NCBI RefSeq assembly: GCF_018143015.1
Contig: NC_054742.1
Coordinates: forward strand, 52,895,195 to 52,959,194
Reading direction: 5' to 3'
DNA: 64,000 nt
Origin: Lytechinus variegatus
Lineage: Eukaryota > Echinodermata > Echinoidea > Temnopleuroida > Toxopneustidae
Part shown: in pieces, positions 11,001-54,274 of the stretch
Numbering within the stretch: position 1 is the stretch's first letter
Layout of the letters: every line of letters begins with the position of its first letter
The notes under the pieces: generated by a model
Told to the model about the DNA's origin: nothing
The model's input: only the letters and a program-made list of their open reading frames with translations
Database searches by the model: none
Made by a program: the position numbers and the translations under genes

Positions 11001-12509
11001 GGTGGAGAAGAAAAAGAAGCCTCTCTCATATTGTAATTGTGAAAAATTTGTGTTCAAAGAAATAAACGTTGTTTGAAACGTCTTGAAAAAATTATGTTTG
11101 GTGATATGGTGGCAGCGGTGGGATAGTGATCTCGCTGGTGGCCTTGATCCTTATAGGCCTATAATCATGATTAATTAAAGTAATAAACCAGATATGATTG
11201 TAACTTTTCAGTGTCTCATCAGTAAAACTGCACAATCAAGAAGGAGTATTGGAAAGTTTTTTTTATAAAAGTATTTATTTTCTTTCATCAGGTGTTTTCA
11301 GCTTCCAAAAGGATCAGCCTTGCTCTAAGCTTCGGTGCAAAGGACAGCAGGGGAGTTAAACAACACCCGACACAATACATGCTTACACCTCAACACACTT
11401 TTGGATCATTTGGATTGGACCATCTTTTTGATGTCTTTGTTCATAATGACACTATAATCAAGGAGTACTCAAACTTCAATGCTCTGAACCTGACTTCTTC
11501 AGCAACATCCGTGTTTCAGCCGGTCCGACAAGGGTACCAAGTCGGCGATACTGTTGAAATTCGAATAGACGCTTACAATGGGATGGGGTACCCTCAGACT
11601 GCTGGTGGTGACTTCTGGTTTGTGACAGTGGCATCGCCCGACGGGTATTTCAGAAGTGCCGCCCGTCTGGTGGATCATCAGAATGGGAGCTATTCGGCTT
11701 ATTTCTTGGCGCCGCGTCCTGGAAGACTTAACTTGCAAGTTGTTCTAGGTTACCCATCCGACACTGTGAGGTGGTTGAGTGAGGTTTATATGAAAGCCGA
11801 CGGTTGCTTCACTTGGGCTGCAACATACAATCGTTACGGGTTTGGTGATGGTCAAGGTCGATGCGTTGTGAAACGAGGGATGAACCACCTGTTGAACGAA
11901 AACATTTGCTTTTATGGCGCCAATGAGACCGGGATGGGCCAGAGCGCTCTCATATGCACCAAGCCCAATGGGTTCATTTGTGATGATATCAGATCTATAA
12001 TGTCCTATGGACAGTATGCTGGAATAGAGAGACCGGTTAATCAGCTCATTGTTGGAAAGAAATATCTATTCAACAAGTAAGTTCTTCCAATTACGGTTCG
12101 TTATTACAACGGTTCCATGTCATAGGTCATTATTAAACACTTTTTGTACAAGAATCTTCTCGGTTACAACTTCCTCCCGAATGAAATTCTCTTATCGTGC
12201 GATGGTTATATGATAACTAGAAGGGTATATTACGAATGCTGCTATAATCTTGTCGGAAAGAGAACACAGTCACCAGTGTGTTTCATGTTGTGTTAGTGTA
12301 GTCAATCCAGTGGAATTGGAAAATTTCTTCATAGTGTGGTACACAGTGTGTCAATATAGCTATGATGAATATTACCACATAGCGACTAAACTATACAGAT
12401 TGAAAAGGTGTTCGTCGTATATCGCGCTGTGAATATTATATTCACAGTCTCATTGGCGCCATAAAAGCAAATGTATATATATACATATATACATATATAT
12501 ATATAATAT

Positions 12510-12564
<55 letters not shown>

Positions 12565-14715
12565 GTGTGTGAATATATATATTTACATATAAAGTCAGTC
12601 ACACAGTGAACACAGTGATGAAACGCTCACTATTCCATGAAAGATCCTATGAATGATGAAGGACAATTTAATCACATTATATGTATATTTTTTTTACAAC
12701 AAAGCAATGATATTCACAATGTGGTCATTATATAGAACTTTTGCTGAACATGCTTAAGAAGTGTCAGACAGTGGCATTCTTCTTCACAGATTGGCTTTTA
12801 TTTTCAAAGCATAGGGATTGTGTAAACACACAATTGCGAATGAATTTCAGAATTTCTGTTTTTTTTTCCTATCATTTGTTTGAAAGCAGTGTTTTTGCCA
12901 TTATTACATACTGAATAAGTTTTCAGCCAGTGTGAATATTATTGTTTCACTGTGTGGCAACTATGTGTCATAACTGTGTAATATTCGTATTATACTGTGG
13001 TCACGATGTCTTCATACAGTTTACTATAATGTATTGAGTGTGTTGACCATGTATGTTTATGTCCAACAGGGAAGCGGCACTGAACTTGCACTAAAAGGGA
13101 GCGATCCTCGTGGGCAATTCCATAAATCTAGTTTTTGTACGTCCGACCCCCACCCCCATTTTCTCAATTCTTTCTTCACTTTATAAACTGACCAAGTCAC
13201 TGTCCTTTGAGAACATTACAGACTGTCGAAAGAACAAAAAAAAAGACAGAAAATGTCATGAAGTTCCCACATTGGCCACATATTGGGGGCGGATGTACAT
13301 TTTTTTTTATGGAATTGCCTTCTTGTATAATCAAGGTCTGCTCGGGATCAGTGTCCAAATATTTTTTTATGCTTAACCATCTGGTAAACAATGTGTGTTT
13401 TCATTTTCAAAAAAAAATCACAGCACATTTTACAAGACCAACTTGATATCACCCAAGTCAGTGTATCACATAGACATCGCAGAAAAGAGTAATACAGGTA
13501 AGTTCATTCTGGTATCTAGTGCTGACAGGCCGTAGAATTGTCATTACGCTATATTTTTGGACACACTTATTGGATTTCCAATACTCTGGCGAGCAAAAAA
13601 TATGGTGAAATCAAAATAAGCTGAGAATATGATATAAAATATAGATTGCCCTCAGCTTCATGATTCTAATGACATTATACATAATCAATTATATAGTTCC
13701 TATAATCTGGGTACAATTATACATTCTGTCTGTCGTAAAGTGTCACTACTTTTCTAGACATCATTTTTGCAAAGGCTTAACGTTATTTATAAGTAAATGT
13801 ATTGATATATCTTCTTTTTTTCTTCAAATTAATACTTTTTAAATATTTTTCTAAATGTTATCCAATCTAAAATTTCTTTTAAAAGACGTTATTGTGCTTT
13901 TTTCTTTGTAAATCAAATCAGGAATGATGACTGAAGTCTATGATTACAAGGTGGAACGTCCCAGAGTACCTTGCGGTGACGGCGACAGTAGGAACTCAAG
14001 TTTACTCCCAGAAGGATATTGGTTAGGTCCCAGATGGCAATCGCTCGTTTGCGCCAACAAACGGTGGGATGATGTTGACGACGTCAAGAAATGCCTTACA
14101 GGTCACAAAATCATCATTTTAGGCGATTCTATAGGATGTCAGTGGTTCCGCACGCTAGAGAAGAAACTGGGCGACAAAAATGTGCCAAATTCATATTATT
14201 ATTGCACCGAGGATATGACGCACACGGTCCTTTACAAAAGACACGTGCTCTCTGCGGCACTCACTGCAACTTTTAACTTTGTTGGTTTAGAGCGCATGTT
14301 CGAAGGGGAATACATGGATATGCTCAATGACACGAGTGTGAAATACGTCATTTTAATCAGCATGTCGGCGCACTACTCCTCATGGAATATGGACAGCTAT
14401 CGAGATAGAATGCGTTCTATTCGTGACGCCATCGCGCGCGCGCGTACGAGGCTCGGCGACGATCGCGTTATGGCCGTCGTAAAAAAGTCTCAGCCCCGAG
14501 AACAGCCTTCGTTTCTAGCTCGTGTGCACAGTAATGACTATGTTTTCAGACAAATGAGTGGGATAATGGAGGACGAATTTGTCGGTATTGATGCAAAGAT
14601 GATAGACACTTGGGATTTAGTTACATCTTATCAAAACCAAGTATATGTTCATATGCCCTGGCCATGTATTAATGAAGAAGTTGATTTGTTTCTTTCGTAT
14701 TTATGTCCTTCTTGA
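7877..14715 (+). CDS. NXPE-family protein (neurexophilin and PC-esterase domains), 4 exons
   Basis: Spliced gene of 601 codons plus stop: exons 7877-8029, 11292-12076, 13424-13497 and 13922-14715. The splice phases (0, 2, 1) match at every junction, and the total of 1806 nt is divisible by three. Residues about 36-51 are a hydrophobic signal-anchor, suggesting a type II membrane or secretory-pathway protein. Exon 2 carries the neurexophilin-like domain (GGDFWFVTVASPDG, NGSYSAYF). Exon 4 carries the PC-esterase domain with GDS at residues 405-407 and a C-terminal DTWD...VHMPW block that supplies the Asp and His expected in this fold. NXPE proteins of vertebrates are about 540-560 residues, so this is full length. 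The substrate is not known from sequence. The exon 1 assignment rests on phase and the membrane anchor and is less certain than exons 2-4. Confidence 0.85.
8883..9125. mobile_element. MITE with TGCGGTGTTAA-type TIRs (copy 1), TA flanks
   Basis: The left end CACTGTAAAAACTGTGGTGTTAA and the inverted right end CACAGCAATAACTGCGGTGTTAA match at 19 of 23 positions. TA lies on both sides (8881-8882, 9126-9127). The interior is a string of GGTGTTA/TAACACC repeats. A second, similar 235-bp copy lies at 25257-25491. It sits in NXPE intron 1. Confidence 0.75.
9128..11291 (+). other. Rest of NXPE intron 1: no exon seen
   Basis: AT-rich intronic sequence with a C run near 9231-9246 and T-rich runs near 10868-10895. 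Short frames here have no protein character. A small additional exon cannot be excluded, but none is required by phase. Confidence 0.4.
11292..12076 (+). CDS. NXPE exon 2: neurexophilin-like domain
   Basis: The acceptor is TTTCTTTCATCAG before 11292 and the donor is AA|GTAAGT at 12077, phase 2. It encodes the beta-sandwich-like N-terminal domain with GYQVGDTVEIRIDAYNGMG, GGDFWFV and NGSYSAYFLAP blocks, then a cysteine-containing segment (GCFTWAATYNRYG...CVVKRG...CFYG...ICTKPNGFICDD) typical of the middle of NXPE proteins. The apparent stop at 12078 lies inside the donor site. Confidence 0.85.
12474..12596. repeat. (TA)n microsatellite
   Basis: About 120 bp of nearly pure alternating TA with a few C or G interruptions in NXPE intron 2. 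It is prone to length variation. The surrounding intron (12250-13020) also has many CACAGTG/CACTGTG words in both orientations, suggesting a decayed fold-back element. Confidence 0.9.
13424..13497 (+). CDS. NXPE exon 3 (74-bp micro-exon)
   Basis: A 74-bp exon between acceptor AAAAATCACAG and a strong donor ACAG|GTAAGT. Its first base completes the codon left by exon 2, and its last G combines with GA of exon 4. It reads TFYKTNLISPKSVYHIDIAE, linking the two domains. It was found because the flanking phases (2 in, 1 out) require exactly such an exon. Confidence 0.85.
13922..14715 (+). CDS. NXPE exon 4: PC-esterase domain and stop
   Basis: The acceptor AAATCAG precedes 13922 and the exon ends at TGA 14713-14715. 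It begins with VERPRVPCGDGD and EGYWLGPRWQSLVC, then the esterase blocks KIIILGDSIGCQWF and YVILISMSAHYSSWN, and closes with MIDTWDLVTSYQNQVYVHMP and FLSYLCPS. A GC-rich CGCGCGCG patch lies near 14430-14445. No clear AATAAA was found in the first few hundred bases downstream. Confidence 0.9.
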
Positions 14716-23192: not shown

Positions 23193-24002
23193 AGGCAGTA
23201 CATTCATTGTTTAACAAAATAGCTATACAAAATGATATTATTTTACATACTTTACCCATACCTCTTATCAAAAGGCAATGCTGATAATAATTATTAAAAA
23301 ATGATTTTCTTCTCTGATATTTGACGCCTTTCTGCTGCCCTCTACATTCGTTGGTAATCACGTTACCTGTGAAATTCATCAATTGAAAAAGTCTGTTTTT
23401 TTTCAGAAATTTGAAATAGGAACACTTCCTCCAATGGAAAAAAAATGATACTATCAGACAAGAAAGGTTACATAAACAGACTAAAACAAATTATCGAACT
23501 TGCAAAAAATAAGCAATTAGCAGAAGTATAGAAAGGCATATTCAAACGGGCCACTAAAATGGGGCAAATAAGAGGAATTTGACAATAAAAGGAAAAAGGA
23601 GTACAGTAACTAAAAGGGGCAATAAACACATTTCGAAAAGGATAATTCAATTAAAAGTTGCATTTTTAGAGGTCAAGCTTTAAGGTCCGAAATGGTAAAA
23701 GAACTATATTTCCTACACAAATATTATTACTCAAACGTTGACAATATTAACAGGCCTTCGTTATACTAAATAAATCGTATCTGTCTATATCTTTCATTTG
23801 CCTATTTAACCTTATAAGATTCAAAGAAAGGCATTAAATTCCATTAATAAACAAAAAGTGTAAAGAGGTCCCACCGAGACTTGAACTCGGATCGCTGGAT
23901 TCAAAGTCCAGAGTGCTAACCATTACACCATGGGGCCGTGATTATCAATCCTGAGCAAAATGTTGTTAATATCCGATAGGGGCTAATCCAGTGGCTGATC
24001 CA
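23193..24002. repeat. Segmental tandem duplication, copy A
   Basis: It starts GGCAGTACATTCATTG and includes CCTCTTATCAAAAGGCAA, GAAATTCATCAATTGAAAAA, the tRNA-Gln and a GAGCAAAAT.TTGTTAATAT..GA..GGGGCT tail. The same order recurs in copy B at 24769-25809. Copy B is longer mainly because a 235-bp MITE is inserted in it. Confidence 0.75.
23866..23937 (-). tRNA. tRNA-Gln(TTG), slightly diverged
   Basis: The - strand reads GGCCCCATGGTGTAATGGTT and so on, with anticodon loop CTTTGAA (anticodon TTG), an intact anticodon stem (CTGGA/TCCAG), the T-loop B box GAGTTCAAGTC, and discriminator T. It is 72 nt, the normal length for animal tRNA-Gln. One acceptor-stem pair (3:70) is C.A rather than T.A, so it may be less active than the copy at 28788-28859. 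Confidence 0.85.
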
Positions 24003-25491: not shown

Positions 25492-25679
25492 AGTATTGTT
25501 CAATAACGATAGTTTCTCTACAAACAAATATAATTCAGACGTCTATTTTCATTTACATCTATGTTACAAAACAAATTCCATAAGTATCATCTTTTCTTTG
25601 CATGTTTTAACCGGATAAGATTTAAAAAAAAAAGGTATTTAATTTCAGTAAAAAAAAATAAACAAACAAAATATTGCAG

Positions 25680-25755
25680 AGGTCCCACTGAGACTTGAAC
25701 TCGGATCGCTGGATTCAAAGTCGAGCCAAAGTGCTAACCATTACACCATGGGGCC
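25680..25755 (-). pseudogene. tRNA-Gln pseudogene
   Basis: Copy B counterpart of the tRNA at 23866-23937. It is 76 nt instead of 72: the 5' half of the anticodon stem carries extra bases (CGAGCCAAAG on the + strand replacing CCAGAG), which breaks the stem. One T-stem pair is also lost. The TTG anticodon remains, but the arm cannot fold. Confidence 0.8.
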
Positions 25756-27669: not shown

Positions 27670-28787
27670 TTACCTATACATAGTCCACTTGTTGTTGCAT
27701 TTTGCATCCTGAGAATGTGCACTGCAGGCGTCAAACGTTTGATGAAATGATAAAAATGAAAGTTGAAGAGTTTTGACAACACCAATGAAATATCCGTAGG
27801 TTTTCTTCCCTTTCAAAGCTATGTTTACAATCAAGTATTGCGAAACAGTCGTTCTCGACATCAAATATCAAACTTGTTTTCCACAGTACTGTTATTGCAT
27901 GCTTGTTAAACGAAAAACATTCCATTGTAATTGTGTGTGAAAATACCGCCCATTCATGCGCCGATTCTATTATTTCATTGACCTATTCTGAATAAGTTGT
28001 TAAGATTTCCTGCCATTGTGCGTTCGTTTCACCTCGTTGCGCATTACGTAATCCCCAAGTTCAGTAAAAGACCGATTTTATAGCTCTTTGTAAATTTATG
28101 ATGAATATTTAACAAAAATATGAATAAAAATTAAATTCTTCAGTTGTGGATCTCGGCGGAAGCGCAAGGGAGGCGCCTCCTAAATATTTTACCCTATATG
28201 GTTATTCTTGGCGAACAATGGCGGACATAATTTGCCAACAATGCAGAATATGATTTTCGTTATTTTATTTTGGTGTATTTAACTGTAATAGGTCGGTGAA
28301 TATCTTTACAAGAGATATACAGTATTAGACATATTTACTAAGCAAAGACAAAAAAGGAGGTAGTTTGGGGTGCCCCTACATGAGATTTGCAAATCAGGAA
28401 ATGATAACAAATGAATGCTATACTTTGACATTCATCGTAATGTTTTAACAAGATTTTTGAAAGGGATCCCTTATCATGTTTTGGATGTGTTATTATTATT
28501 CTGAAAATGGAAATCAATAAAATGAAATGGAATTACATGTAATGTCTATTGGTTATAAATGGTATAAATTAAAGAAAACGAAAAATATGCAGTGAATCAA
28601 CAGTGCGATCGTTTATGGGTTTTTTTTAATACTTAATGATTACAGAAAAAAACAATGATGTGAGGAATAGATAAAGTAATATTAAAATTAAGAATGATTA
28701 TTGAACATATTTAATCATCTCGCACCCAAAACTGTGGGAGAAAAATTTACTTAGGGAATTTAAAGAAAAGTGAAGAGTAAATAAAAG
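27670..28787. other. No supported gene; possible minor exon on - strand
   Basis: On the - strand an open frame (27864 to 27670) ends at a good donor-like AG|GTAAGT near 27676-27671. It has ordinary composition but no recognisable domain and no partner exons, so it is not called as a gene. The left copy of a local duplication (28478-28712) lies at the right end. Confidence 0.3.
28478..28712 (+). repeat. Local duplication, left copy
   Basis: Matches 29184-29402 in the same orientation: TCTGAAAATGGAA, TGGTATAAATTAAAGAAAACG, AAATATGCAGTGAATCAA, ACAATGATGTGAGGAATA. The two copies bracket the intact tRNA-Gln at 28788-28859, offset about 706 bp. Confidence 0.75.
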
Positions 28788-28859
28788 AGGTCCCACCGAG
28801 ACTTGAACTCGGATCGCTGGATTCAAAGTCCAGAGTGCTAACCATTACACCATGGGACC
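28788..28859 (-). tRNA. tRNA-Gln(TTG), intact
   Basis: The - strand reads GGTCCCATGGTGTAATGGTT and onward, ending TGGGACC plus discriminator T. The acceptor stem is fully paired (GGTCCCA/TGGGACC), the anticodon arm is CTGGA-CTTTGAA-TCCAG with anticodon TTG, and the T arm contains GAGTTCAAGTC. It is 72 nt. This is the only one of the three copies without a stem defect and is the best candidate for the functional gene. Confidence 0.93.
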
Positions 28860-29183: not shown

Positions 29184-29402
29184 GTTGGATGTGTATTCTG
29201 AAAATGGAAGTGAATGAAATGAAATGGAATGACATGTAATGTCTTTTGGTTATAAGTGGTATAAATTAAAGAAAACGAAAAATATGCAGTGAATCAATGG
29301 TAGAACAGTGCAATCGTTATGGGTGTTTTTTACTTAATGATTCAAGAAAAAAAAACAATGATGTGAGGAATATAGGAATGATTATTGAACTTATTTAACG
29401 AT
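29184..29402 (+). repeat. Local duplication, right copy
   Basis: Counterpart of 28478-28712, diverged by substitutions and small gaps. It does not include a tRNA copy. Confidence 0.75.
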
Positions 29403-29639
29403 GTTATGCAGATGATGCATCTTTTGACATGTAATATTCAGAAAATATACCCAGTTGTTGTGTATCCGGACGGGTTGTGTGTCCGGACGATCAATTTTAG
29501 AATGTCATTTGGAAAAATTTACAAGCGAAGTTTCATCAATATTTAGGAGAAAATGTTAGGAAATATTATAAAGAACAAAATAGATAATGATTACAAGTAA
29601 TGAATTCATATTTTCAGTGTAATCCACAGACAAAAGGCG

Positions 29640-29960
29640 CGATCTCCCAGATGAAAACGCTTGTAATTTATGTCTATGAAAATACGTGAAAAAGTGTCCG
29701 GGCACCTGACTCCCCCACCCTACAATATTACAACCCTTTTCATTTCCTTTTCTTTCTCTTTCGTCTTGTTTATCTATTTTCCGTGGACGTGGAACTTTTT
29801 TTGGGGGGGGCGGGGGCGCGGCTCATAAGGCCACCCTCCCTCTGTACGCCAGTAAAGTCGAATAAGCGCGATCTTGTATGCTATACGCCATGCGCGCTCC
29901 CGGGCGCGCTCTCTCAGATGAAAACGCTTGTAATTTATGTCTATGAAAATACGTAAAAAT
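29640..29960 (+). repeat. Short direct duplication (~45 bp x 2)
   Basis: CAGATGAAAACGCTTGTAAT plus TTATGTCTATGAAAATACGT occurs near 29650 and again near 29918, about 268 bp apart, each preceded by GCGCG-type sequence. Between them lie a G run and GC-rich sequence. It is probably the edge of a decayed element with GTCCGGAC words (29460-29500). Confidence 0.55.
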
Positions 29961-30011
29961 GATTAAGATTTCTTTTATTATGAATAAATGAATATTGAAT
30001 TGTTTTTCAAG

Positions 30012-30140
30012 ATGGATGTTAGGAGACTAAGGATCCATTCCTTTCTCACAGCAATAAGCATGTTTTTGTTCACTTCTTTTATCGTCTTGGGAAAAAGTTT
30101 TCCACTGGCAGAAACTGCAAGGCCCAGGGAGCACACTAAG
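30012..30140 (+). CDS. Novel gene exon 1: signal peptide
   Basis: Starts at ATG 30012. An upstream in-frame ATG at 29988 would add eight residues and spoil the short basic n-region. It encodes MDVRRLRIHSFLTAISMFLF and a further hydrophobic stretch ending near VLGKS, then PLAETARPREHTK. Donor AAG|GTGAGA, phase 0. Confidence 0.65.
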
Positions 30141-32596
30141 GTGAGAAATATTTCATGGTTGACAGCTAGGGCGGCACATCCGATCCGTACTGACGAGCGA
30201 ACACGGCACCCCCTCATTTCGAGAGCCTTTAAAACATTTGACATGTTTGAAGTGGAAAATGATTTTTTTTGCTCGGATCCGACCCTAGGTTCGTCCTCTA
30301 GCTGAACCTATACATCGACCTCATATTTTGCTCACGAGATTTTGATGAGACGTTGTGCACATTTTGCTCTTGAGAATTAAAAGGAACTAAAAAAAGTTGA
30401 AGAATTTAAAAGAAATTCATGTTTAATCGTAAATTCAATTCAAGTTGCCTTAAATGGACCTACCCTGCCTTAAAGCTTACCAGCTTTGAAACTTTCCCAG
30501 CAGATCAGAGAATTTATTCCTTCTTTCTGCCATCCATGAAAAATGACACCCTCTTTAAAATTTTCATGTGCCATGCTTTGCAGAGAGGACTATCCGCTCC
30601 GTGTTTCTCTCATTCAGACTGTCTTCGAACTGAGATCTGTAAGTGGAACCCTTCTGCTGTTGAATTGGCGGGAACCTGTGTTGCTACACTCCTCCAGAAA
30701 GAAAACACAAATCGAAGACATACGGTAGGTCTACGTGAAGAAGAAAAAGAATTATAATAAGAAGGAGGGGGAGGAGGAGAAAGGAGAAGAGAAGAAGAAA
30801 AAGAAGGAGAAGAAGGAGGGGGAGAAGGAGGAGAGAAGAAGAAGAAGAAGAAGAAGGGGAAGAGATCGACGAATATATTTATAATGGAAAGAAATGATGA
30901 ATATATTTCTTTTTAATATATGTTTTCTAAATATGATATGCTCATTACGCCACCGACAGGACTGACCTCTAAAACATTTTACAATTTGATTATGATGAGT
31001 AATGAGAATAAACCATAATTGATCATTGATATTAAAGATTCTTGGTCGAACGCGACGAAAATTGTTATCAGACGAAGTCTTCGACAACAAAAAGACATCT
31101 CGTGAAACACGTGATTTGAATTCAGATGAGTATGATGAACATCAGCACGGAGACGATCGAAGTAAGTTGAATACTTACCATGATTATAAAAATGGCCAAG
31201 TCGTTACCGAAAAGAAGGGTAGGCACTTGATGGACACTTTTAAAAGAAAATACCGACACAAAAACTTTTATTATAGCACATTTTCTTCTGTGGTCATATT
31301 CTGTAAAGACACTGCTGCAACTAAATTTCTAGAAATTGTCCCTTTTAGATATTTTTTCCCAAATACCTGTAATTAAATGCGTATAACAGGCCCGCTATCC
31401 AATCTACATTGCGATTAATTAATTTTTCTCTTTCTAATACTTGTGTTTTGTGAGAAATAGCCAAGTAGGACTTTCATTCTGAATGATCTATAAGGTACAT
31501 GTAAACAAAGTTTACACTTTTCTTTTTTAGACGACGAGCTGCAGGTGTCACATCGTATTCCCCAGGCCTCATACCCACTTCCACATAAGACCCCTATTCA
31601 GAATAACCACCACCACGACGAGGGTGTCGATCGCACGGATGACATCGTGATCGATCATTTTGACGAGAAAGGACTCCCCGTCGTGGTCATAACAGAAGAC
31701 AACCGTGATAAGCACGCCGAAATCGACACCAGTAAAGACTATTACGTTTTCGGTGAAGAAGATGACAAGAACAACCCTGACAGTGAGACGAAAACTGAAA
31801 GCATCGTCTACGATTACGTAGACGGTTCGGAGGTTGACGATGGTGGTGGCAGCGATGAAGAGAGAAAAGAAGTGGTGGTAGACTTGAAAGGTAGACAGAT
31901 TAACCCAGGAATAAAATCCATTTTCAAGAACCCGTGGGGGTTTCAACCGCTCAAAGCAAAACCCGCAGAGGACATGATGGATGGTGGTGACGATGAGTAC
32001 CTTAATGACGATGCACAAGTGTATGGAGTCGGAGATCATAAGCACGTGGGAACAAGATTTAAACATACTGGTGAATATTTATAATGTATGATTCCAGTCA
32101 CACACACACAAAAAAAACATTCGTAATAATCTTAGTGATTGTCGCCTTATTTTGTTGCTTGGTCAGTTTAGTCAGTAGGGCTTTTAATGAGGATCTACTC
32201 GGGTAATATAGGAGCCATCTGACCCCCCCCCCTCCTGTGCCGTCACCCCGTATCTATATATGTTTAAGATCAGAACGATATGCCCTAACTTTTTTTATGA
32301 TTTTATATACCATCATTAATCTCTTTTAATTTGCACCATTATTAATCTCTCGCGCCCTAGCATACCCTTTGTTTCTCTCCCTCCTCTCCCCCTTCCTCTT
32401 TTTGATCTCTTCAATTTACCCTGCCTATTCATTCTACTCCACTTTCTAAGATCTGACCGGTACGAAAATCGAGACGGATGTCGGAGTCGACCAATTTCGA
32501 GAACGTCAACAACCACATAGTTTGGTATCAGCTGACCACTCCAAGATTGCATTGCCTGGACTTCTTACCAAAGATTTAGAAGCACATAACTATTAA
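30012..32596 (+). CDS. Unrecognised secreted proprotein candidate, 5 exons, 359 aa
   Basis: Proposed exons: 30012-30140, 30584-30724, 31038-31161, 31531-32070 and 32451-32596 (stop TAA 32594-32596). Junction phases are 0, 0, 1, 1 and agree at every junction; 1080 nt is exactly divisible by three. The N-terminus is a signal peptide (MDVRRLRIHS then a hydrophobic run to about residue 31). Exon 2 encodes the only four cysteines after the signal (residues 50, 56, 62, 75; spacing C-x5-C-x5-C-x12-C). A furin-type RTRR lies at residues 94-97. The rest is Asp/Glu/His-rich with a conserved-looking NPWGFQPL block near residue 265. The family is unknown. The cysteine spacing loosely recalls half of a colipase/Dickkopf-like knot, which is only a resemblance. 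Exons 3 and 5 have weaker splice sites or rest on phase, so the model is provisional. Confidence 0.6.
30584..30724 (+). CDS. Novel gene exon 2: four-cysteine module
   Basis: Acceptor CATGCTTTGCAG before 30584 and donor ACG|GTAGGT. It encodes 47 residues including PCFSHSDCLRTEICKW and GTCVATLLQ. C-x5-C-x5-C-x12-C suggests two disulfides in a secreted mini-domain. It ends with NTNRRHT, a dibasic site. Confidence 0.65.
30759..30865 (+). repeat. 107-bp uninterrupted polypurine tract
   Basis: Every base from 30759 to 30865 is A or G, built from GAAGGA/GAAGAA units, inside intron 2 of the candidate secreted-protein gene. Uninterrupted homopurine tracts with partial mirror symmetry can form intramolecular triplex (H-DNA). 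The complementary strand's Leu/Ser/Phe-rich frame is an artefact of this tract. Confidence 0.9.
31038..31161 (+). CDS. Novel gene exon 3: furin site and acidic linker
   Basis: Acceptor ATATTAAAG before 31038 (poor pyrimidine tract) and strong donor GTAAGT at 31162. It encodes ILGRTRRKLLSDEVFDN then DLNSDEYDEHQHGDDR. RTRR fits the furin R-x-R-R consensus. Phase 0 in, phase 1 out. Confidence 0.5.
31531..32070 (+). CDS. Novel gene exon 4: acidic domain
   Basis: Strong acceptor TTTTCTTTTTTAG before 31531. The frame stays open to 32084, but a donor ACTG|GTGAAT at 32071 gives the phase needed for exon 5. The alternative is that the protein ends at TAA 32082-32084, giving 315 residues. It has low-complexity acidic runs (GEEDDKNNPDSE, GGGSDEE), a His cluster (NNHHHDE) and one ordered-looking block, INPGIKSIFKNPWGFQPLKA. 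An antisense frame of 165 codons is a shadow. Confidence 0.7.
32451..32596 (+). CDS. Novel gene exon 5: C-terminal tail
   Basis: Acceptor CTCCACTTTCTAAG with a pyrimidine-rich lead of about 60 bp. It reads LTGTKIETDVGVDQF, RERQQPHSLVSADHSKIAL and PGLLTKDLEAHNY, then TAA. The codon split (G|AT) fits exon 4. Composition and length fit a terminal coding exon, but no homology was recognised. Confidence 0.5.
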
Positions 32597-33352
32597 AGAT
32601 ATAGAGGATGCAGCAGAGAATGTGGGAAAGAGCTACATAATGTAGTAGTATTACAGTTCCTGTTATATTCGAGAGAGAAACGAGAAGAGTCGCCAACCAT
32701 GTTCATTTAATATCTAGTACAATGCTCTCTTTTCCTGAGGGGCATCTATAAGAACCCTTTCAGCAGAATTGATAGATGATAAAGATGGATAGAAAAGTTA
32801 AATTGACTTGAAAAGGAGGACGTTGAACAGAAAACCGTGAAATTCTTTTTCTGAATCCAACTGAATTTTAGTGAGAGCAATCCAATTCCGATACACCCTC
32901 TGCAAAGTCATAATTTGCAGGTCAAGACATTATTGTCATACTCCGTACCTTCCCCTCCTTGTCTTCCCTGCCTTCTCCTTTTCCTCTCTCTCTCTTCACC
33001 TTCCTCTCCCATTCTCAAGCTATTAGTGGTGTACAGTGAGACAATCGTTACAAATCAAATCACATCATTTTCCTTTTTGTTATAAGAGACATAATTTATG
33101 AATTGATATCTTGACTGTAAATATCCACAATTTATATTTCAACGAAGCTACAAAATCTTGAAATAAACAGCAGGTCAAGTCAATTACAGTTATACAATAA
33201 AAATTTTAGGTGAAAGACATAATATGATATAAACAATTTATGATATCTGTTAATTGAATGCTTTTTCAGTTGTGTAATTTTTTTTACTGATTTGAACAAA
33301 TATATCAAATGAACCTAACTTGGTCTGTGCATGAAACTAAATTTGAATAAAG
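32597..33352. other. No gene seen; downstream of the candidate gene
   Basis: Likely 3' flank or UTR of the candidate gene. A pyrimidine-rich stretch lies at about 32948-33015. AATAAA-type hexamers exist (for example GAAATAAACAG near 33160), but a cleavage site cannot be assigned. Confidence 0.35.
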
Positions 33353-33354
33353 TA

Positions 33355-34210
33355 GGGGAAGGCGGGGTAAGTTGTGACAGTTTTTGCTTTTTGCATGTTA
33401 GAATTGATATGATTAATAATCTTGTCGAAATAAGTATCTTGCCTTGAAATTTAATTCTTCTGAAATATTTTCCACCTATATATAACTTTCAATCCCACAC
33501 TGAAAGTCATTGTGACCTTTGAAAAAAACGATGTCAAATGGCTCAACTTGCCCCATGTATGGGGTAAGTTTGAGCCACCTTCTGGGGTAAGTTGAGCCAC
33601 AAAAACTATGTACAAAATGTATGATGGGAGAACCAGCATGCCAATTTTTTGTTTAAAGTCTTTTCACTTGCTAATTCTCTATAATACTAACATCCTTTAA
33701 AAGGAAAAGAGCAGTCATGTAAATTTGCTCCTTTCAGCCAGCATTTCAATCGATTTTTATGGTTTGTTTGTTTTTTAAGATACATTACCATAGGAATTAC
33801 CATGGCTCAACTTGCCCCATGCTGTTTGGCTCAACTTACCCCAGTCCGAACTTAGTGCGATAATTTTGTATCCACACATTTATAATGCATCCATCATATA
33901 AAAGACTATGACAAGATTGAAGATCGATACCTGGACTAATAATGTTGTTATCATGTCTTTATTATATTTAAAGACGTGTGTGTTTATAAAGCACTTATCT
34001 ATTTCACACTCTTTTTTACTTTTTGGCTGAAATTCATATTTTTCCCTCTAAAAAACTACTTTTTGTTTCAAAGTTGAAAACAATGTGGTGGGGTTAGGGG
34101 TTATGCTATGGGTCATCAATACATGACACCACCACAATGTCTGACTCATTCATTATTGGCCTGGGCTGGTGGCTCAACTTGCCCCTATGCTCAACTTACC
34201 CGCCTTCCCC
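33355..34210. mobile_element. TA-flanked element built of GGCTCAACTTACCCC-type words
   Basis: Ends GGGGAAGGCGGGGTAAGTTG and inverted GGGGAAGGCGGGTAAGTTGA lie between TA dinucleotides (33353-33354, 34211-34212). Inside, TGGCTCAACTTGCCCCATG or its complement recurs near 33540, 33563, 33583, 33803, 33825 and 34170. No transposase. At 856 bp it is non-autonomous; the TA target suggests a Tc1/mariner- or ISL2EU-like mobiliser. Confidence 0.75.
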
Positions 34211-47800: not shown

Positions 47801-50800
47801 TCATGAATCAGATCCATAAACTTTCAAAGTTATGATGGGAATTCAACAGATATCCCCAATTCGGCCAAAGTTCATTGACCCTAAATGACCTTTGACCTTG
47901 GTCATGTGACATGAAACTCATGCAGGATGTTCAGTGATACTTGATTAACCTTATGTCCAAGTTTCATGAACTAGGTCCATATATTTTCTAAGTTATGATG
48001 ACATTTCAAAAACTTAACCTCAGGTTAAGATTTCGATGTTGATTCCTCCAACATGGTCTAAGTTCTTGACCCTAAATGACCTTTGACCTTGGTCATGTGA
48101 CATGAAACTCTAATAGGATGTTCAGTAATACTTGATTAACCTTATGGCCAAGTTTTATTAACTAGGTCCATACACTTTCTAAGTTATGACGTCATTTCAA
48201 AAACTTAACCTCAGGTTAAGATTTGATGTTGACGCCGCCGCCGTCGCCGTCGGAAAAGCGGCGCCTATAGTCTCACTTTGCTTCGCAGGTGAGACAAAAA
48301 GATGTTAGAAGGACCTTGAAGGCAGAATTTTCATCAAAAAGTTACAAAGACCACAAAATTATATTATTACAAGCTCCATCTCATAAAAAATTACATTGGC
48401 AAGAGGATTAAAAAAAGTATCACGAATGCATAGTATGGTTGCTATAATAAAAGTCACTATAAAGTCTTTTAAAAACGGAATATGGAATATTATAAAGATC
48501 ACACAATTCTTTGAACAGTTTTCTTATTCTTAACAGTTTGAAAGCTCTATGTGTCAAGGAAAGAAAGATACCAGAATTTACCTTGATGGGATACGTGTAT
48601 CAAGTAATTACTTTTTATCAGGAAGTAAATAGAACAAAGAATTTTATTGATATGTTACAACGATAATCAAATATCAATTCTAGCTTTCCAAAACCGAGTT
48701 TTGTTTGAATATATCATGACCCGTTACAAGGAAGTGTCAAGATTCTTTTATGTGATGGATTGAAATTTTGAAATGCTAAAGGTCTAAGTTCACTTACAAA
48801 GTGACATCATATCCCTGACAAATTGAGATACAACACATGAAGTCCTGTTGCCTTGAAGGTTCTTCTCCCATGTACTTGATGACAATATTAGCTCCCATGC
48901 TGAATCCTATTGATACAAATTTACTGGATGTAAAGTGTTCCTTGACGTAGTCTACCATGGCAGCATATTCCCCAGTCTCTCCTGAAAAATAAAAATTTAC
49001 TATGGTTGTAACATGGTCATTACAGACGTTTCATGGACTTTGTTCTTGATTTAGTACAAGGTGGAAATACATGCGATATTTGTAGTCAAGGACAATATGG
49101 AACAGTTTGGCAGCACTTCCATGATTTTGTGAAGTATATATACCGACTCATTTCAAAGGAATCTAAAGAAAAATATATATATTTTTTTTTTTTTACATGT
49201 AATCATCTAGGAGCACTGTATTACAGAACATAGGCCGGTTTTAACAACATACTAATGTTTACATCGATTTTGTAAGTGATTTTAACTTTAACATGTTTAT
49301 TTTCAAAATTCACTGGAACTGTTGTTTCCCCATTAGAGAACCTTTGAAAAAAAATAACCTAAATGTAGGATTTATATTCACTTGGTCAACAAGTGGTTGG
49401 TCTTCTTCTCAGATAGTCTAATACCACTTGGGCTAAACCCACTTGGTCTACTAACAATTTGGTCTATTTGCCATTTGGTCTACACTATACCTAGTCCAAT
49501 ACCCACTTAGCCTAATGTCCATAATGGTGTAAGTTCTGCTAAGTCTCATTATTTTGCAGTTTTTCAAATGAAAATCTTGTTAATGAACAGTTCTAGGTCG
49601 TGTAGACCAAAATGGATATTAGAAGATATGGGGAAAGCCTAACAGGAAATTAAAAAAAAAAAGAGCTAACTGCAAATTAAACTGAATGATTAGTAGACCA
49701 ACTATGATTAACCATGTGGGATGAAACCAAAATGAAAGTAGTCAAAGCCTTTAAGACCAAGTGACAATTGTTGATACGTACGTAATCTTTAGGATTAATT
49801 CTTAATTATGTTTTATTCTCCGACACATAAGAGCAGATATTATTTACATTACTCATATTAATTATCTGGCAAGTCCAAAGGTGAACTTTTGAACATGGAT
49901 ATTATCTTGAACAAACGATAAGGTCCCTTACTTTCCCTAACTTTCTTTTTCGGAAAGGGATTTTCAGAATCCCCAATTATTACCACTGAGGACAGAGCTG
50001 TAGGCTACCAACAATAAGTCCTGCAAAAGCGTGCCTAATAAATAAACACACTTGCAGAATCGGCAGACATTATTTCTTACCATATGTGAAAATTCTTGGT
50101 GAGGTGAGTGGAACTGAAGGAAGGGCACCTAGGTGGTTGAGGACGGCCACACGGAAGCCCTGTGACATGGCGTAATGGATGAAGGTACGCACGTAGGCCT
50201 TCTCAGAATGGTTGGCTATACCAGGACATACACACAGCGTGACATCAGCTACATGTAAAAAGGATATGAAATCGCTATTTTCAAAATTACACATAAGCAA
50301 ATTATACGCCATTGAAGTTGATATATTTGTACCATATAACTGTTATCGCAACATTCTCAACAATCCCTGATAAACTTTCACTTAAAGGAGAATGAAACCA
50401 TTGGAACAAGATAGCTTGTGTGAAAACAGAAAAATCAAAGAAACAGATCAACAAAAGTTTGTGAAAAATCGGACAAATAATGAGAAAGTTATGAGCATTT
50501 GAATATTGTGATCACTAATGCTATGGAGATAGCAAATTGGCAATGTGACAAAGATGTGTGACGTCACTTGTGAACAACTCTCCCCATTACTTTAGTATAT
50601 ATTTCACTTGAATTGCCTCTTTTATCACATCTATCCATAGATCATGTGTTCTTTCTACATGAGGGCATGTAATACATATTTTTAAGAATACATCATGGAT
50701 AGAGAGTTTGTATCATCATAAAAAAAGCAAAAAGAGACATTTTGAGGTATTTTATTGTCCACCAAGGGGAAATGTTAAAATTAGTGACATCACACATCTT

Positions 50801-52571
50801 GGCATTGCAATGGGAGGATCTCCAGCATTAGTGATTGCATATAATATGTTCATTAATTTCTCATTATTTTGTGATTTTTTTCTAATTTTTTTACATTTTT
50901 ATTCTTATTCTTTGATTTTTCTGTTTCTACAAAGCCTATTTGTTCAAAGGTTCATGTCCAAGTGCCATTGATTTTACAAGTCAATGCTTTTTGGTATTGA
51001 AGGGACAGAGCATACACCTCCAAGTAATTACATCAATGGCTTTCCATACTTCAGAAATTTCTAAAGTGACACATTCCTGTGTCACTTAAGGACAAGTGCC
51101 ATTCCTAAAAATATCACAAAAACAATTATTACAAAATAGTTCATCAGGGTTCTCTTTTTTATTCCTTTAGTTTAAGGATATAAACACCTTATTATTACAA
51201 TTCAAGGTGGGATCCCGCAAAATATACCACCAAGAAGCTCTCTCATATATCTGTTCCCAAAGGTACACACAAATTTTTTGAAAGATTTGACTGGCAACAA
51301 CTGGAATAAGCACCCCCCCCCAAACAAAAAAAAAAAGAGAGCATCAAATGAGTTCTTGAGTTTTTACTTAGTACAGAAATTTTCTAACAGTCTCATCTAA
51401 AATGTGACAAATGACATTCTTTGCACTTGCAATAAAAGTACTAACATTGGCTTATTTCAACTTTGACTATAAATGTATAAATGTGATTTAAAAATGAATG
51501 AGACCAACATTTGCCACATTCCAGACAGTGTACAGTGATGGTCAACTATAATATATGTCATAAATCTCTGATATCATGTATGGTAACTTACCACCTTGAG
51601 GATGGGGATTAGATGGCTCAAAAATATCAAAAGTAAAGGTAGCCCCATCTGGCCGAGGTATATTGATACGCTTCCCCTTCGGATACGGTGCATTGAATCG
51701 ACCGATTTTAGCATAGATGAAGCTCTGAATGTGTGCATTGTGACCCCACAAACGGTTAGGCACATATCTAGGAGAGAGAAAAATAAACAAAGCTTGCTTG
51801 TAGTGGAAAAGGCAGTATAACACATCTTTTTCTTACTAAACATGAGCATACAGTGATGAATATTTCATTCTCTTCCCATTTTCCTGCTCCAAATCTATAT
51901 CTAATTACTTGGGCATAGAATGGAGAAGCAAAAGGAAATCCTTTAAATTACAAACATCTTCTGAAGTGCTATTTGTAGATGTTCAATAATGCATCTCTGG
52001 CACACCATGAAATGTATAATTTCTAAATCTATTCATTATTTTAGAGTGCAGGGATAGCCACAAGCATTATGAAACCTTGTATCAACATTCAGCACAGAGA
52101 ATCAGAGACGCAACCACACTATGAAGAAAATATCATTTGGCAGATGAAATAAAGTGAAATTGCAACCATCCATATAGTTCTATGATTTCTATCAAACATC
52201 TCAGGCACAATGCTTGCTTGTAAATACCTGTAATCAAAACAATTTTATCTGATACAAAAAACCTGGAAATATATGTTTAAAACCAAGTTGAAATTGAATT
52301 TGGGAATAACTGATCTTAAGAAACGCACCATAAGATACCGGGGGGGGGGGGGGGGGGGGAGGGGCTGGAAGTTTGGGTTGATGCAATTTTTTTTCCTTTC
52401 TTCTTTGAGTACCAGGTAAAGTTTTTTTCCTTAGTCCATTGAGACAAGTTTTTTTTTGCCCTTTTCAGATGATTTGACAGTGGACCAAGTTTTTTTTTAC
52501 TCTGATGGTGAGTCAAATTTTAGTTTTTGCTCATAAGAATTAAACAAATAATTTTTTTTTTTTAATTTCAG

Positions 52572-52616
<45 letters not shown>

Positions 52617-52871
52617 ATATCTAATGCTGCATCCTTAACTGCAGTAAAAGCCTTTAATTTACTCCCAGACATTGGTTTCAAACTTCGTGCACAATTTGAT
52701 TGAAACTTACGGTTTTGTGAGGATGGAACACAATGAGATGATGCTGCGGTTGTACTTGCTATCCCTGTAGTGCAGGGTGGCAGCAGCAGGCTGATCAAGC
52801 AGCTTCAATACTTTGAAGAGGAAGAAGTACAAGAAGACAAGGACCAATGCTGTAGATATTAAAATCCCCAT
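44552..52871 (-). CDS. ABHD2: ABHD2-type alpha/beta-hydrolase lipase, 7 exons, 419 aa
   Basis: Exons on the - strand: 52871-52711, 51767-51592, 50248-50081, 48981-48798, 46508-46290, 45540-45471 and 44833-44552. Phases (2, 1, 1, 2, 2, 0) agree at all six junctions and the coding length is 1260 nt. Length (419 aa; the vertebrate protein is about 425) and motifs match ABHD2, a membrane-anchored serine hydrolase acting on monoacylglycerols and reported as a progesterone-activated lipase in sperm. Seen here: an N-terminal membrane segment (ILISTALVLVFLYFFLF), RLWGHNAHIQS, CPGIANHSEK, VLNHLGALPSVPLTSPR, nucleophile elbow GFSMG with Ser196, the acid residue in NANDDALI (338/339) and His370 in HGGHLGFFEG. 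A 5' acceptor (ATTCCACAG, ending 52909) implies a further non-coding exon upstream. Hormone response in this organism is not shown by sequence. Confidence 0.95.
45172..45312 (-). mobile_element. tRNA-derived SINE fragment in ABHD2 intron 6
   Basis: On the - strand GGCAGTGTGGTCTAGTTATG (A-box-like) is followed about 45 nt later by GTGGGTTCAATTCTAAGCC (B-box-like), then a body rich in CCTGCTTGAG. The arms pair poorly, so it is a SINE head rather than a tRNA gene. Confidence 0.5.
45471..45540 (-). CDS. ABHD2: ABHD2 exon 6 (70 bp)
   Basis: Acceptor GTTCTCTCCAG and donor AAG|GTAAG. Encodes KMCRYNSLSDFYESC then HMFK, the YNS..E/DYY..C segment of ABHD2. Missing it would break both phase and homology. 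Confidence 0.9.
46290..46508 (-). CDS. ABHD2: ABHD2 exon 5: cap region
   Basis: Acceptor CATTTCCATAG and donor AG|GTAAC. Encodes AAKVLHEWDSMRRFYNFMM and continues to FRSTSLVHLDEEMT. This is the helical cap characteristic of ABHD1/2/3-type enzymes. Confidence 0.95.
46640..47110 (+). repeat. Diverged tandem repeat, ~140-bp unit, ABHD2 intron 4
   Basis: Two clear units start at TCATGCGGAAACCAACTCGC (46851 and 46989, 138 bp apart), followed by AATGAGCTGTGA(C/G)CTTTGACCTG and GCCTGTATTTTGGTGTC. A third, weaker unit precedes them near 46690. One unit holds a full TGACCTTTGACCT at 46886-46898. Confidence 0.7.
47236..48295. repeat. Tandem-repeat element with DR1 motifs, ABHD2 intron 4
   Basis: Bounded by GTCTCACCTGC (47236-47246) and its exact inverse GCAGGTGAGAC (48285-48295). 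Six units, recognisable by GTTCAGTGATACTTGATTAC, start at 47308, 47471, 47624, 47766, 47929 and 48120, so the period varies between 142 and 191 bp. Units carry AAAGTTATGATGG, GGCCAAAGTTCATTGACC and TGACCTTTGACCTTGGTCAT. The element ends in a GC-rich segment (GCCGCCGCCGTCGCCGTCGG, 48234-48253). The TGACCTTTGACCT copies are direct repeats of the nuclear-receptor half-site AGGTCA with one-base spacing. Confidence 0.8.
48798..48981 (-). CDS. ABHD2: ABHD2 exon 4: catalytic serine
   Basis: Acceptor TTTTTATTTTTCAG and donor TT|GTAAGT. Encodes GETGEYAAMVDYVKEHF, then FVSIGFSMGANIVIKYMGEE (nucleophile Ser196 in GFSMG) and MCCISICQGYDVT. Confidence 0.95.
49381..49760. repeat. TTGGTCTA-rich repeat, ABHD2 intron 3
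   Basis: Words of the type CACTTGGTCTA, CAATTTGGTCTA and CCATTTGGTCTAC recur from 49381 to 49525. Complementary forms (GTAGACCAAAATGG, GTAGACCAAC, AAGACCAAGTG) recur from 49596 to 49770. The layout is an imperfect inverted repeat. Confidence 0.65.
50081..50248 (-). CDS. ABHD2: ABHD2 exon 3
   Basis: Acceptor ACATGTAG and donor TATG|GTAAG. Encodes ADVTLCVCPGIANHSEKAYV and VLNHLGALPSVPLTSPRIFT. The PGxxNHSEK region contributes the oxyanion-hole strand in this family. Confidence 0.95.
51592..51767 (-). CDS. ABHD2: ABHD2 exon 2
   Basis: Acceptor TTTCTCTCTCCTAG and donor GTG|GTAAGT. Encodes YVPNRLWGHNAHIQSFIYAK, then ATFTFDIFEPSNPHPQG, the start of the hydrolase core. Confidence 0.95.
52336..52618. 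mobile_element. MITE-like element with poly-G / poly-C ends, ABHD2 intron 1
   Basis: GATACC followed by a run of about 20 G at the left faces a C run of more than 40 followed by GGATATC at the right, so the ends are inverted repeats that are nearly pure homopolymer. The interior is T-rich. The homopolymers may also be affected by assembly error. Confidence 0.55.
52711..52871 (-). CDS. ABHD2: ABHD2 exon 1 (coding): N-terminal membrane anchor
   Basis: ATG at 52871-52869. Encodes MGILISTALVLVFLYFFLFK, then LHYRDSKYNRSIISLCSILTK. Donor CC|GTAAGT at 52710, phase 2. The exon probably extends to 52908, where a pyrimidine-rich acceptor lies. Confidence 0.9.
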
Positions 52872-54274
52872 GATGGACTACATATAGTGAACCCTCACCC
52901 AGTTCTTACTGTGGAATGGTAAGAGATGAGAGAAAAAAACAAATGAATATTGTAGTAAGACTTAGAGTCACATTTAAATGCTGACATGTACATGATATCT
53001 AATGCACAATCTTATTGTTCAATATGCAGTTGTGTGCTATCCTCTTGGCATGATCTGACCAATGCCATCGTGCCTTTTATAATTCATGCAAGTAGACATA
53101 TAAGTGCGATTCTAAGTCAAACTCAAGTCTTTGTGAAACACCCTTCAGGTGTATGAGAGATAATATGTGAAGTGGTAAGTCAAATAGGATAAGCTGATAT
53201 ATTATACAGATGAGGAAAGAATAAAAAATATATGTTTTTCTCTGTGTGCATTATAATCTTTTATCAATAACCGCTCTTCCAAAAACTGGATCAGTCCTTG
53301 TTTTTTAGCCTATCAAATGGCTGCGAATTGAAGGGAGATGGCGCTATTTACTTTAGAAATGGCCCAAAATTTGTATGCAACCCTAACATCCCCAGTTACT
53401 AGTGAATGGTCATGAACATACACAAATGCCCCCATAGGCATGTTGCATACATGTATGTGTCCACAATAACATGGGAGTGTGAGTAAGAGAGCCAGAGATA
53501 CATGTTAATATTTTGAGACCGAAAAAAAGAAAAACAGTGATATAAGTATTTGTTAACATTTATTGTTTATATAGATATTATATTAATTATATCTAAGAAG
53601 CTCTATTTGGATGTATACATAAACATATTGTACCAGGGACATGAAATAGTAAGAATACTACCCTGCTTTTACCGATGAGCCAACAACAAGATAATTTAGG
53701 TGTCTCAACAATTACAGACATTTTCATTTGGCAGCAGTATCTCGGATCAACGAGATAAAGTCAGATTCTAACTTCGCCTGTCAGTTCTTGATGATGCATT
53801 ACACTCTGAGGTACATTTTGTGGGCATAACAGGTATCAGCAAACAGAAATAGCAATAATTCAAGTAATGAATCATTCAAGTAACAATTACTTGAATTGTT
53901 GTTTTTCAGTTCGCCGATGAAGTTAATTATCTCAGATTCATGCAAGAACATTAAAAACAAAAAAACTATTATAAATCTTTCATAATCATGAGAGAGCTCT
54001 AAAATAGTGCCAATTGTTGGAAAATGCTGAAATTAGTCAATTTGAAAGTAATAACAAAATATGCCATTTTTACAAGATTAAGGGCTTCCCTTCTGTTGAA
54101 CAGAACTAACTTTAAATTTGCAAAATTGATCCAAAACAATGCTTCGAGAGACAAAAAATAGTAAATACCAAGTGCTATTTTTCTCCCGCAGACGCCAGTC
54201 GGCTCCGAAGGGTCAACATCGACATGCTACATGGAATATCAAACCCCTGTTGGAAAACTTTGTCATTAATTTGT
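52872..54274. other. No gene seen upstream of ABHD2 coding start
   Basis: Contains the presumed ABHD2 5' UTR acceptor (ending 52909 on the - strand) and otherwise AT-rich sequence. A non-coding first exon or promoter could be here or further right, but none can be pinned down. Confidence 0.35.

What the first reader, a model, noticed from the sequence alone, without database searches (positions are those of the whole stretch)
30012..32596. Unrecognised five-exon gene for a secreted four-cysteine, furin-site, acidic protein
Five exons share compatible phases and give an exact open reading frame of 359 codons. The product has a signal peptide, one C-x5-C-x5-C-x12-C module, an RTRR processing site and a long acidic His/Asp/Glu tail with a NPWGFQPL block. 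I cannot place it in a known family. The layout fits a prohormone or a rapidly evolving extracellular protein.
Basis: partly seen in the sequence, partly recalled or inferred. Interest (0 to 1): 0.7.

Follow-up and report, generated by a model that had tools for sequence, protein, structure and literature searches.

The report
Orphan secreted four-cysteine peptide precursor gene
A single-copy animal gene that looks real encodes a secreted-looking protein which could be cut to release a small two-disulfide peptide from a long acidic tail; it matched no protein family that could be searched here, and what it does is untested.

Summary
The five exons join exactly as described (four GT-AG introns, 359 codons plus stop). 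Exon 4 is the strongest coding signal found in the window. A mechanical spliced-ORF search refinds the locus, and 0 of 200 simulated sequences reach its length. No second copy was found in its 870-Mb genome. Least secure are the exon 3 acceptor, which brings in RTRR (open alternatives exist), and exon 5 (read-through gives 316 aa). There is no transcript or orthologue evidence.

No match at a family's cut-off in Pfam or NCBIfam, and nothing significant in the PDB. All four cysteines lie in one symmetric exon framed by dibasic sites: K43-R44, 42 residues, R87-R88. I read it as a convertase-processed precursor of a two-disulfide peptide. The spacing (5-5-12) fits the disulfide-directed beta-hairpin except for one Gly/Pro position, and resembles half of Dickkopf CRD1 (5-5-9). 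The nearest kind I found in print is the starfish KARTESH/CHUPA precursors, with the parts in another order; homology is untested. No structure prediction could be obtained. Modest interest.

The parts
30012..30140 (+). Exon 1: start codon, signal-peptide-like segment (about residues 1-29), and K43 of the K43-R44 dibasic site
   Evidence: donor score 10.7; hydrophobicity 2.25 over residues 12-26; alternative in-frame ATG at 29988, in-frame TAA immediately before it
30584..30724 (+). Exon 2: symmetric phase 0-0 exon with R44, all four cysteines of the protein, and R87-R88
   Evidence: acceptor 8.7, donor 8.8; only itself matched in the genome
30602..30679 (+). Four-cysteine module C50-x5-C56-x5-C62-x12-C75
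   Evidence: C-x5-C-x4..6-C-x6..19-C (no other Cys inside) occurs twice in the six-frame translation of the window, once here
30713..30718 (+). R87-R88, predicted dibasic convertase site on the C-terminal side of the module
   Evidence: position calculated
31038..31161 (+). Exon 3, contains RTRR (31047-31058); least secure boundary (acceptor score 0.0)
   Evidence: other open routes exist (acceptor 31146; skipping exon 3 to acceptor 31545)
31531..32070 (+). Exon 4: acidic His/Asp/Glu-rich tail with the NPWGFQPL block (31929-31952)
   Evidence: Best coding segment of 706 ORFs; period-3 chi2 82.6 against max 25.0 in 611 tiles
32451..32596 (+). Exon 5: 48 residues including the shared junction codon, then TAA; plausible but unconfirmed
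   Evidence: acceptor 3.9; period-3 reached by 79 of 1000 shuffles. Read-through of exon 4 to TAA at 32082-32084 gives 316 aa instead

Best explanation
A secreted precursor processed by proprotein convertases. After signal-peptide removal, cleavage after K43-R44 and at R87-R88 (and perhaps RTRR 94-97) would free a 42-residue peptide, GLSAPC...ENTN, held by two disulfides (most likely C50-C62 and C56-C75, the I-III/II-IV pairing of the disulfide-directed beta-hairpin). The remaining long acidic tail would act as a propeptide or spacer that helps folding and sorting, or as a separate extracellular product. The peptide is slightly acidic (net -1), so a signalling or inhibitory role is more likely than a cationic antimicrobial one. 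Shown: exon chain and coding signal, motif positions, dibasic sites, no second copy found. Inferred: secretion, cleavage, disulfide pairing, fold and role.
For: Exact frame-compatible chain; 0 of 200 simulated sequences and first- and second-ranked tiles of 52; exon 4 coding signal; hydrophobic N-terminus, dibasic sites at 43-44, 87-88 and 96-97, RTRR at 94, charge distribution; all four cysteines in one phase 0-0 exon, with R44 at its start and R87-R88 near its end; spacing fits the DDH consensus apart from the Gly/Pro (consensus from a passage in PMC10779620; tested); the same kind of precursor is described in starfish (PMC11891777), whose KASH2 peptide has the DDH fold with I-III, II-IV pairing.
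Against: No transcript, peptide or orthologue evidence. The 214-residue acidic tail is long for a spacer. No amidation Gly lies before R87. The middle residue of the C56-C62 loop is Thr, not Gly/Pro. Exons 1, 2 and 3 have no significant coding signal of their own. Further dibasic pairs lie at 96-98, 108-109 and 243-244, so the module is not the only stretch so framed. No structure model was obtained.
Confidence: 0.5

Rival explanations
1. An extracellular acidic matrix or calcium-binding protein in which the long His/Asp/Glu tail is the working part and the small cysteine module is only an anchor or folding cap; cleavage is incidental.
For: Tail of 214 residues, 25% D+E, net -27. An abundant, very acidic tooth matrix protein of sea urchins, phosphodontin, is described as sea-urchin-specific (PMC2830187, abstract and passages).
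Against: Dibasic sites frame the cysteine module; no DNA repeat of 25 nt or more lies in exon 4, whereas phosphodontin is built of 35 repeats; no evidence that the organism is a sea urchin or that the gene is expressed in skeletal tissue.
Confidence: 0.25
2. A free-standing half of a Dickkopf/colipase-type cysteine domain that modulates Wnt co-receptors or another receptor.
For: Spacing x5-x5-x12 against x5-x5-x9 in the N-subdomain of Dkk4 CRD1 with pairs C41-C53, C47-C63 (PMC6078440, passages); those authors suggest an ancestor with one subdomain.
Against: Pfam lists no Dickkopf_N (or other) match to the whole protein at E<=10; four cysteines in all against ten in each of two Dkk domains. The search for the genome's own Dkk genes did not complete (first try, last), so their exon phases could not be compared.
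Confidence: 0.12
3. The gene is real but the model is partly wrong: exon 3 is skipped or differently bounded, or exon 4 reads through to a stop at 32084, so that RTRR and/or the last 48 residues do not exist.
For: Acceptor 31038 scores 0.0 and acceptor 32451 scores 3.9; open alternatives at 31146, 31545 and read-through.
Against: The length-maximising search at the lower thresholds kept acceptor 31038 and exon 5; exon 5 is the longest continuation among the 16 acceptors listed for donor 32070.
Confidence: 0.35
4. Chance chain or decayed pseudogene.
For: Four of five exons carry no independent coding signal.
Against: 0 of 200 simulated sequences reach 1080 nt; exon 4 period-3 far above 611 tiles; no internal stop or frameshift in 359 codons.
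Confidence: 0.05

Closest known systems
KARTESH (KASH1, KASH2) and CHUPA precursors of the starfish Asterias rubens (PMC11891777, parts 1 to 4 of 5 read)
   Same: Signal peptide, acidic region, convertase sites, a mature peptide with four cysteines; the 42 residues predicted here fall within the 35-48 given for CHUPA peptides; KASH2 has the DDH fold, pairing I-III, II-IV
   Different: As the paper words it, their acidic region comes before the four-cysteine peptide; here the peptide follows the signal peptide and the acidic tail comes last.
PpCrAMP, cysteine-rich antimicrobial peptide of Patiria pectinifera (passages in the reviews PMC11767717, and PMC11273428)
   Same: Small cysteine-rich peptide with a predicted beta-hairpin; [quoted passage not shown]
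   Different: Antibacterial; the peptide here has net charge -1. Sequence and precursor layout were not seen
Dickkopf CRD1 / colipase fold (PMC6078440, passages)
   Same: First four cysteines of Dkk4 CRD1 spaced x5-x5-x9 with I-III, II-IV pairing, close to x5-x5-x12 here
   Different: Dkk has two domains with five disulfides each; here one half-domain with four cysteines; no Pfam match for the whole protein
Plant carboxypeptidase-inhibitor type knottins (Pfam CarbpepA_inh; PDB 2hlg, a 'fruit-specific protein')
   Same: Only family listed for exon 2, over 16 residues around PC-x5-C-x5-C (E 0.024); 2hlg E 0.52
   Different: 14.8 bits against a cut-off of 25; not listed when the whole protein is scanned; most likely convergent spacing (inference). 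That 2hlg is a plant inhibitor relative is recalled

Membership tests
KARTESH/CHUPA-type four-cysteine precursors | Signal peptide plus convertase sites next to a peptide with four cysteines | tested here: met
   hydrophobic N-terminus (no dedicated predictor run), K43-R44, R87-R88, C50/56/62/75
KARTESH/CHUPA-type four-cysteine precursors | Acidic region before the cysteine peptide | tested here: not met
   Acidic tail is residues 98-311, after the module; order in the family taken from the wording of PMC11891777
KARTESH/CHUPA-type four-cysteine precursors | Sequence homology | not testable with these tools
   The parts of the paper read give accession codes only; no eukaryotic sequence collection on hand
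Disulfide-directed beta-hairpin (DDH) | Spacing C-X5-19-C-X5-C-X6-19-C | tested here: met
   5, 5, 12
[quoted passage not shown]
   Loop is LRTEI; pattern match False; consensus from a passage in PMC10779620
Disulfide-directed beta-hairpin (DDH) | Disulfides I-III and II-IV, beta-hairpin fold | not tested
   The one accepted structure prediction failed and later ones were not accepted
Dickkopf | Two cysteine-rich domains with five disulfides each | tested here: not met
   Four cysteines in the whole protein; definition from PMC6078440
Dickkopf | Pfam match (Dickkopf_N) | tested here: not met
   No family listed for the whole protein at E<=10; exon 2 alone lists only CarbpepA_inh (HMMER's filters drop most matches above about 0.1)
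Inhibitor cystine knot | Three disulfides, the third through the ring of the other two | tested here: not met
   Four cysteines in the whole protein

The most novel reading that the evidence does not exclude
The gene encodes a single-copy peptide hormone or growth factor built on one free-standing Dickkopf/colipase-type subdomain, carried by one symmetric exon. It would be a living example of the one-subdomain form that was proposed as the ancestor of the Dickkopf and colipase domains, and would add a non-venom gene to those that make DDH peptides.
Probability: 0.08. Interest if true: 0.6.

Novelty: new member of a known kind. Interest (0 to 1): 0.35.

Why it matters
If the peptide is made, it adds an orphan ligand or inhibitor candidate to a group of four-cysteine secreted peptides whose roles are open (KASH2 rises after injury in starfish but had no effect on human fibroblasts, PMC11891777). 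It would also help test whether single beta-hairpin cysteine units are ancestral to Dickkopf and colipase domains. If only the tail matters, it is one more lineage-restricted acidic secreted protein.

Tried and rejected
Prokaryotic or viral relatives: the exon 4 protein found none in viral contigs (1 stretch matched a pattern, 0 confirmed) or in prokaryote genomes (55 stretches, 0 confirmed); this method reaches close relatives only. Paralogues: of 7 matches at E<=10 in the own genome, 5 are the five exons themselves. The other 2 (L007 E 0.95, L008 E 5.5) keep 2 of 4 and 3 of 4 cysteines in the alignment, but neither keeps C56; they are 94% identical to each other over 545 bp in opposite orientation, that is, copies of one interspersed repeat, one of them with stops in frame, so I reject them as paralogues. 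Repeat-derived exon: self-comparison of 29501-33500 with the window finds no repeat inside the gene; a 57-bp repeat pair lies upstream at 29636 and 29903. Orexin-type precursors: starfish and sea urchin forms have six cysteines, and an amidation Gly is described for the two starfish ones (PMC4772807, passages); not met here. Echinoderm neuropeptide catalogues: passages on 'four cysteine', 'cysteine-rich' and 'acidic' seen in four papers (PMC4772807, 12 of 35 places shown; PMC6586643; PMC9793003; PMC5627052); crinoid PCNP6 and PCNP7 have four cysteines but are predicted to be amidated, and their sequences were not seen. Seven peptide words of this protein, or near it, occur in no paper of the held library. 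Bacterial promoter scan of the 5' region: uninformative for an animal gene. Other paper searches.
Full report
OBSERVATION. The sequence at 30012-32596 contains the five exons exactly as given. Lengths are 129, 141, 124, 540 and 146 nt; the introns of 443, 313, 369 and 380 nt are all GT-AG; the joined frame is open for 359 codons and ends in TAA. The exons together are richer in G+C (0.46) than the introns (0.32-0.40) and the window (0.36).

IS IT MORE THAN CHANCE? Exon 4 alone points to a coding gene. Its codon-position signal (chi2 82.6) exceeds every one of 611 same-length tiles, whose maximum was 25.0; the tiles cover the window except 11-16 kb (NXPE gene) and the neighbourhood of this gene. 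It also holds the best coding segment of 706 stop-to-stop ORFs of at least 40 codons, above the two NXPE exons on which the score was trained (61.1 against 47.8 and 45.0; families). The antisense frame of exon 4 also scores high (44.8, fourth of 706), though lower. Of 200 simulated sequences none reached 1080 nt (mean 299, maximum 822), and the tiles ranked first and second of 52 both overlap this gene.

WHERE THE MODEL IS WEAK. Exons 1, 2, 3 and 5 have no significant period-3 signal on their own (168, 528, 122 and 79 of 1000 shuffles reach the observed value); they are short, so this weighs little either way. Splice scores against recalled metazoan frequencies are good for the four donors (10.7, 8.8, 7.8, 7.0) and for the acceptors of exons 2 and 4 (8.7, 7.9), poor for exon 5 (3.9), and near zero for exon 3 (0.0). 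Of the 6 acceptors listed for intron 2 (score -3 or better), only 31038 and the weaker 31146 keep the phase and stay open. Skipping exon 3 to acceptor 31545 is also open. A search with stricter thresholds (acceptor 4 or better, which rules out the exon 3 and exon 5 acceptors by construction) gave two plus-strand chains here: one of 1047 nt by that route with another last exon at 32921, and one of 522 nt that also lacks exon 3 and reads exon 4 in another frame; it also gave a 636-nt minus-strand chain across the locus. RTRR, which lies in exon 3, is therefore the least secure feature. At the 3' end, read-through of exon 4 to TAA at 32082-32084 gives a 316-residue product. At the 5' end, ATG 29988 would add eight residues; 30012 has A at -3 and G at +4 and is preferred. 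AATAAA words at 33162 and 33196 fit either ending.

WHAT THE PROTEIN LOOKS LIKE. The N-terminus has a basic start and a hydrophobic core (best 15-residue window at residues 12-26, mean 2.25). After it comes K43-R44, formed across the exon 1/exon 2 junction. Exon 2, symmetric in phase 0-0, carries all four cysteines of the protein and ends two residues after R87-R88. Exon 3 adds RTRR (94-97). From residue 98 to 311 the chain is acidic (25% D+E, net -27), with the NPWGFQPL block; exon 5 adds 48 residues (net -3). Other dibasic pairs are at 4-5, 97-98, 108-109 and 243-244. The script found no N-glycosylation motif. Cleavage at the two dibasic sites around the module would leave a 42-residue peptide of net charge -1 with two disulfides.

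RELATIVES. Pfam lists no family for the whole protein up to E 10 (HMMER's filters drop most matches above about 0.1); exon 2 alone gives CarbpepA_inh at E 0.024, 14.8 bits against a cut-off of 25, over 16 residues. NCBIfam, a prokaryotic library, lists none up to E 1. PDB sequence search gives only chance-level hits (best E 1.3 for the whole protein, 0.52 for exon 2). In its own genome (869,567,369 bases, 33 contigs) no second copy was found: exon 2 matches itself only (E<=0.001; a 37-residue core, E<=10). The whole protein matches its five exons plus two stretches at E 0.95 and 5.5. These two keep 2 of 4 and 3 of 4 cysteines in the alignment, neither keeps C56, and they are 94% identical copies of one repeat in opposite orientation. 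The tool scores only its best candidates, so a very divergent paralogue could be missed. Prokaryote and viral collections hold no close relative of exon 4. No eukaryotic sequence collection was on hand, so orthologues could not be looked for, and whether the gene already carries an annotation is unknown.

MECHANISM. The layout signal peptide, dibasic site, cysteine peptide, dibasic site, acidic remainder is that of a convertase-processed precursor. The starfish KARTESH and CHUPA proteins are the nearest kind my paper searches found: signal peptide, acidic region, convertase sites, and mature peptides with four cysteines (PMC11891777, parts 1 to 4 of 5 read). KASH2 from that group folds as a disulfide-directed beta-hairpin with pairs I-III and II-IV; CHUPA-3, by contrast, did not fold into a defined structure in vitro. 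The spacing here, 5-5-12, fits the DDH consensus quoted in PMC10779620 (passage) except that the loop LRTEI has Thr where Gly or Pro is expected. It is also close to the N-subdomain of Dkk4 CRD1 (5-5-9, same pairing), which its authors suggest derives from a one-subdomain ancestor (PMC6078440, passages). These are resemblances of spacing, not shown homology; a C-x5-C-x5-C start also occurs in the plant-inhibitor hit. The order of parts differs from KARTESH/CHUPA, so I do not file it there.

RIVALS. A matrix-type acidic protein remains possible (about 0.25), since the tail makes up most of the chain. A Dickkopf-like modulator is less likely (0.12). The estimate that some exon boundary is wrong (0.35) is a separate question and overlaps with the others. 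Chance or pseudogene is unlikely (0.05).

COULD NOT BE DONE. The search for the genome's own Dickkopf genes did not complete (last try). The one accepted structure prediction was interrupted and later ones were not accepted, so no fold search was possible.

VERDICT. A real-looking secreted orphan gene, single-copy as far as searched, of a known general kind.

Noticed in passing
window 11226-14715 (+): NXPE-like gene: one exon with a Neurexophilin match (E 1.1e-6) and one with NXPE4_C (E 2.4e-38).
   Followed up: partly
window 48794-52993 (-): Chain of exons of an alpha/beta hydrolase; one piece matches Abhydrolase_1 at E 1.6e-5, just under the cut-off, and two other pieces match no Pfam family. 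It looks to me like ABHD2, which is recalled, not tested; the PDB search with one piece found nothing at E<=0.01.
   Followed up: partly
window 23865-23937, 25679-25755, 28787-28859 (-): Three tRNA-Gln(TTG) genes on the same strand; the first and last lie in 77-bp stretches 98.7% identical to each other, and the middle one scores lower (37.7 bits against 63.9 and 68.7).
   Followed up: partly
window 28497-28690 and 29194-29393: A direct repeat of about 200 bp (84% identical) some 700 bp apart, upstream of the gene.
   Followed up: no
window 29636-29692 and 29903-29959: 57-bp direct repeat (95%) 267 bp apart; the second copy ends 52 bp before the start codon, which may mark a mobile element at the 5' end of the gene.
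   Followed up: no
window 1510-2328 (+): Reverse transcriptase frame of a retroelement (RVT_1, E 1.3e-25).
   Followed up: no
window 30737-30860: GAA/GGA-rich purine tract in intron 2, upstream of the weak exon 3 acceptor.
   Followed up: no
L007 and L008: Two copies of an interspersed repeat, 94% identical over 545 bp in opposite orientation, with matching ends that suggest terminal inverted repeats.
   Followed up: partly
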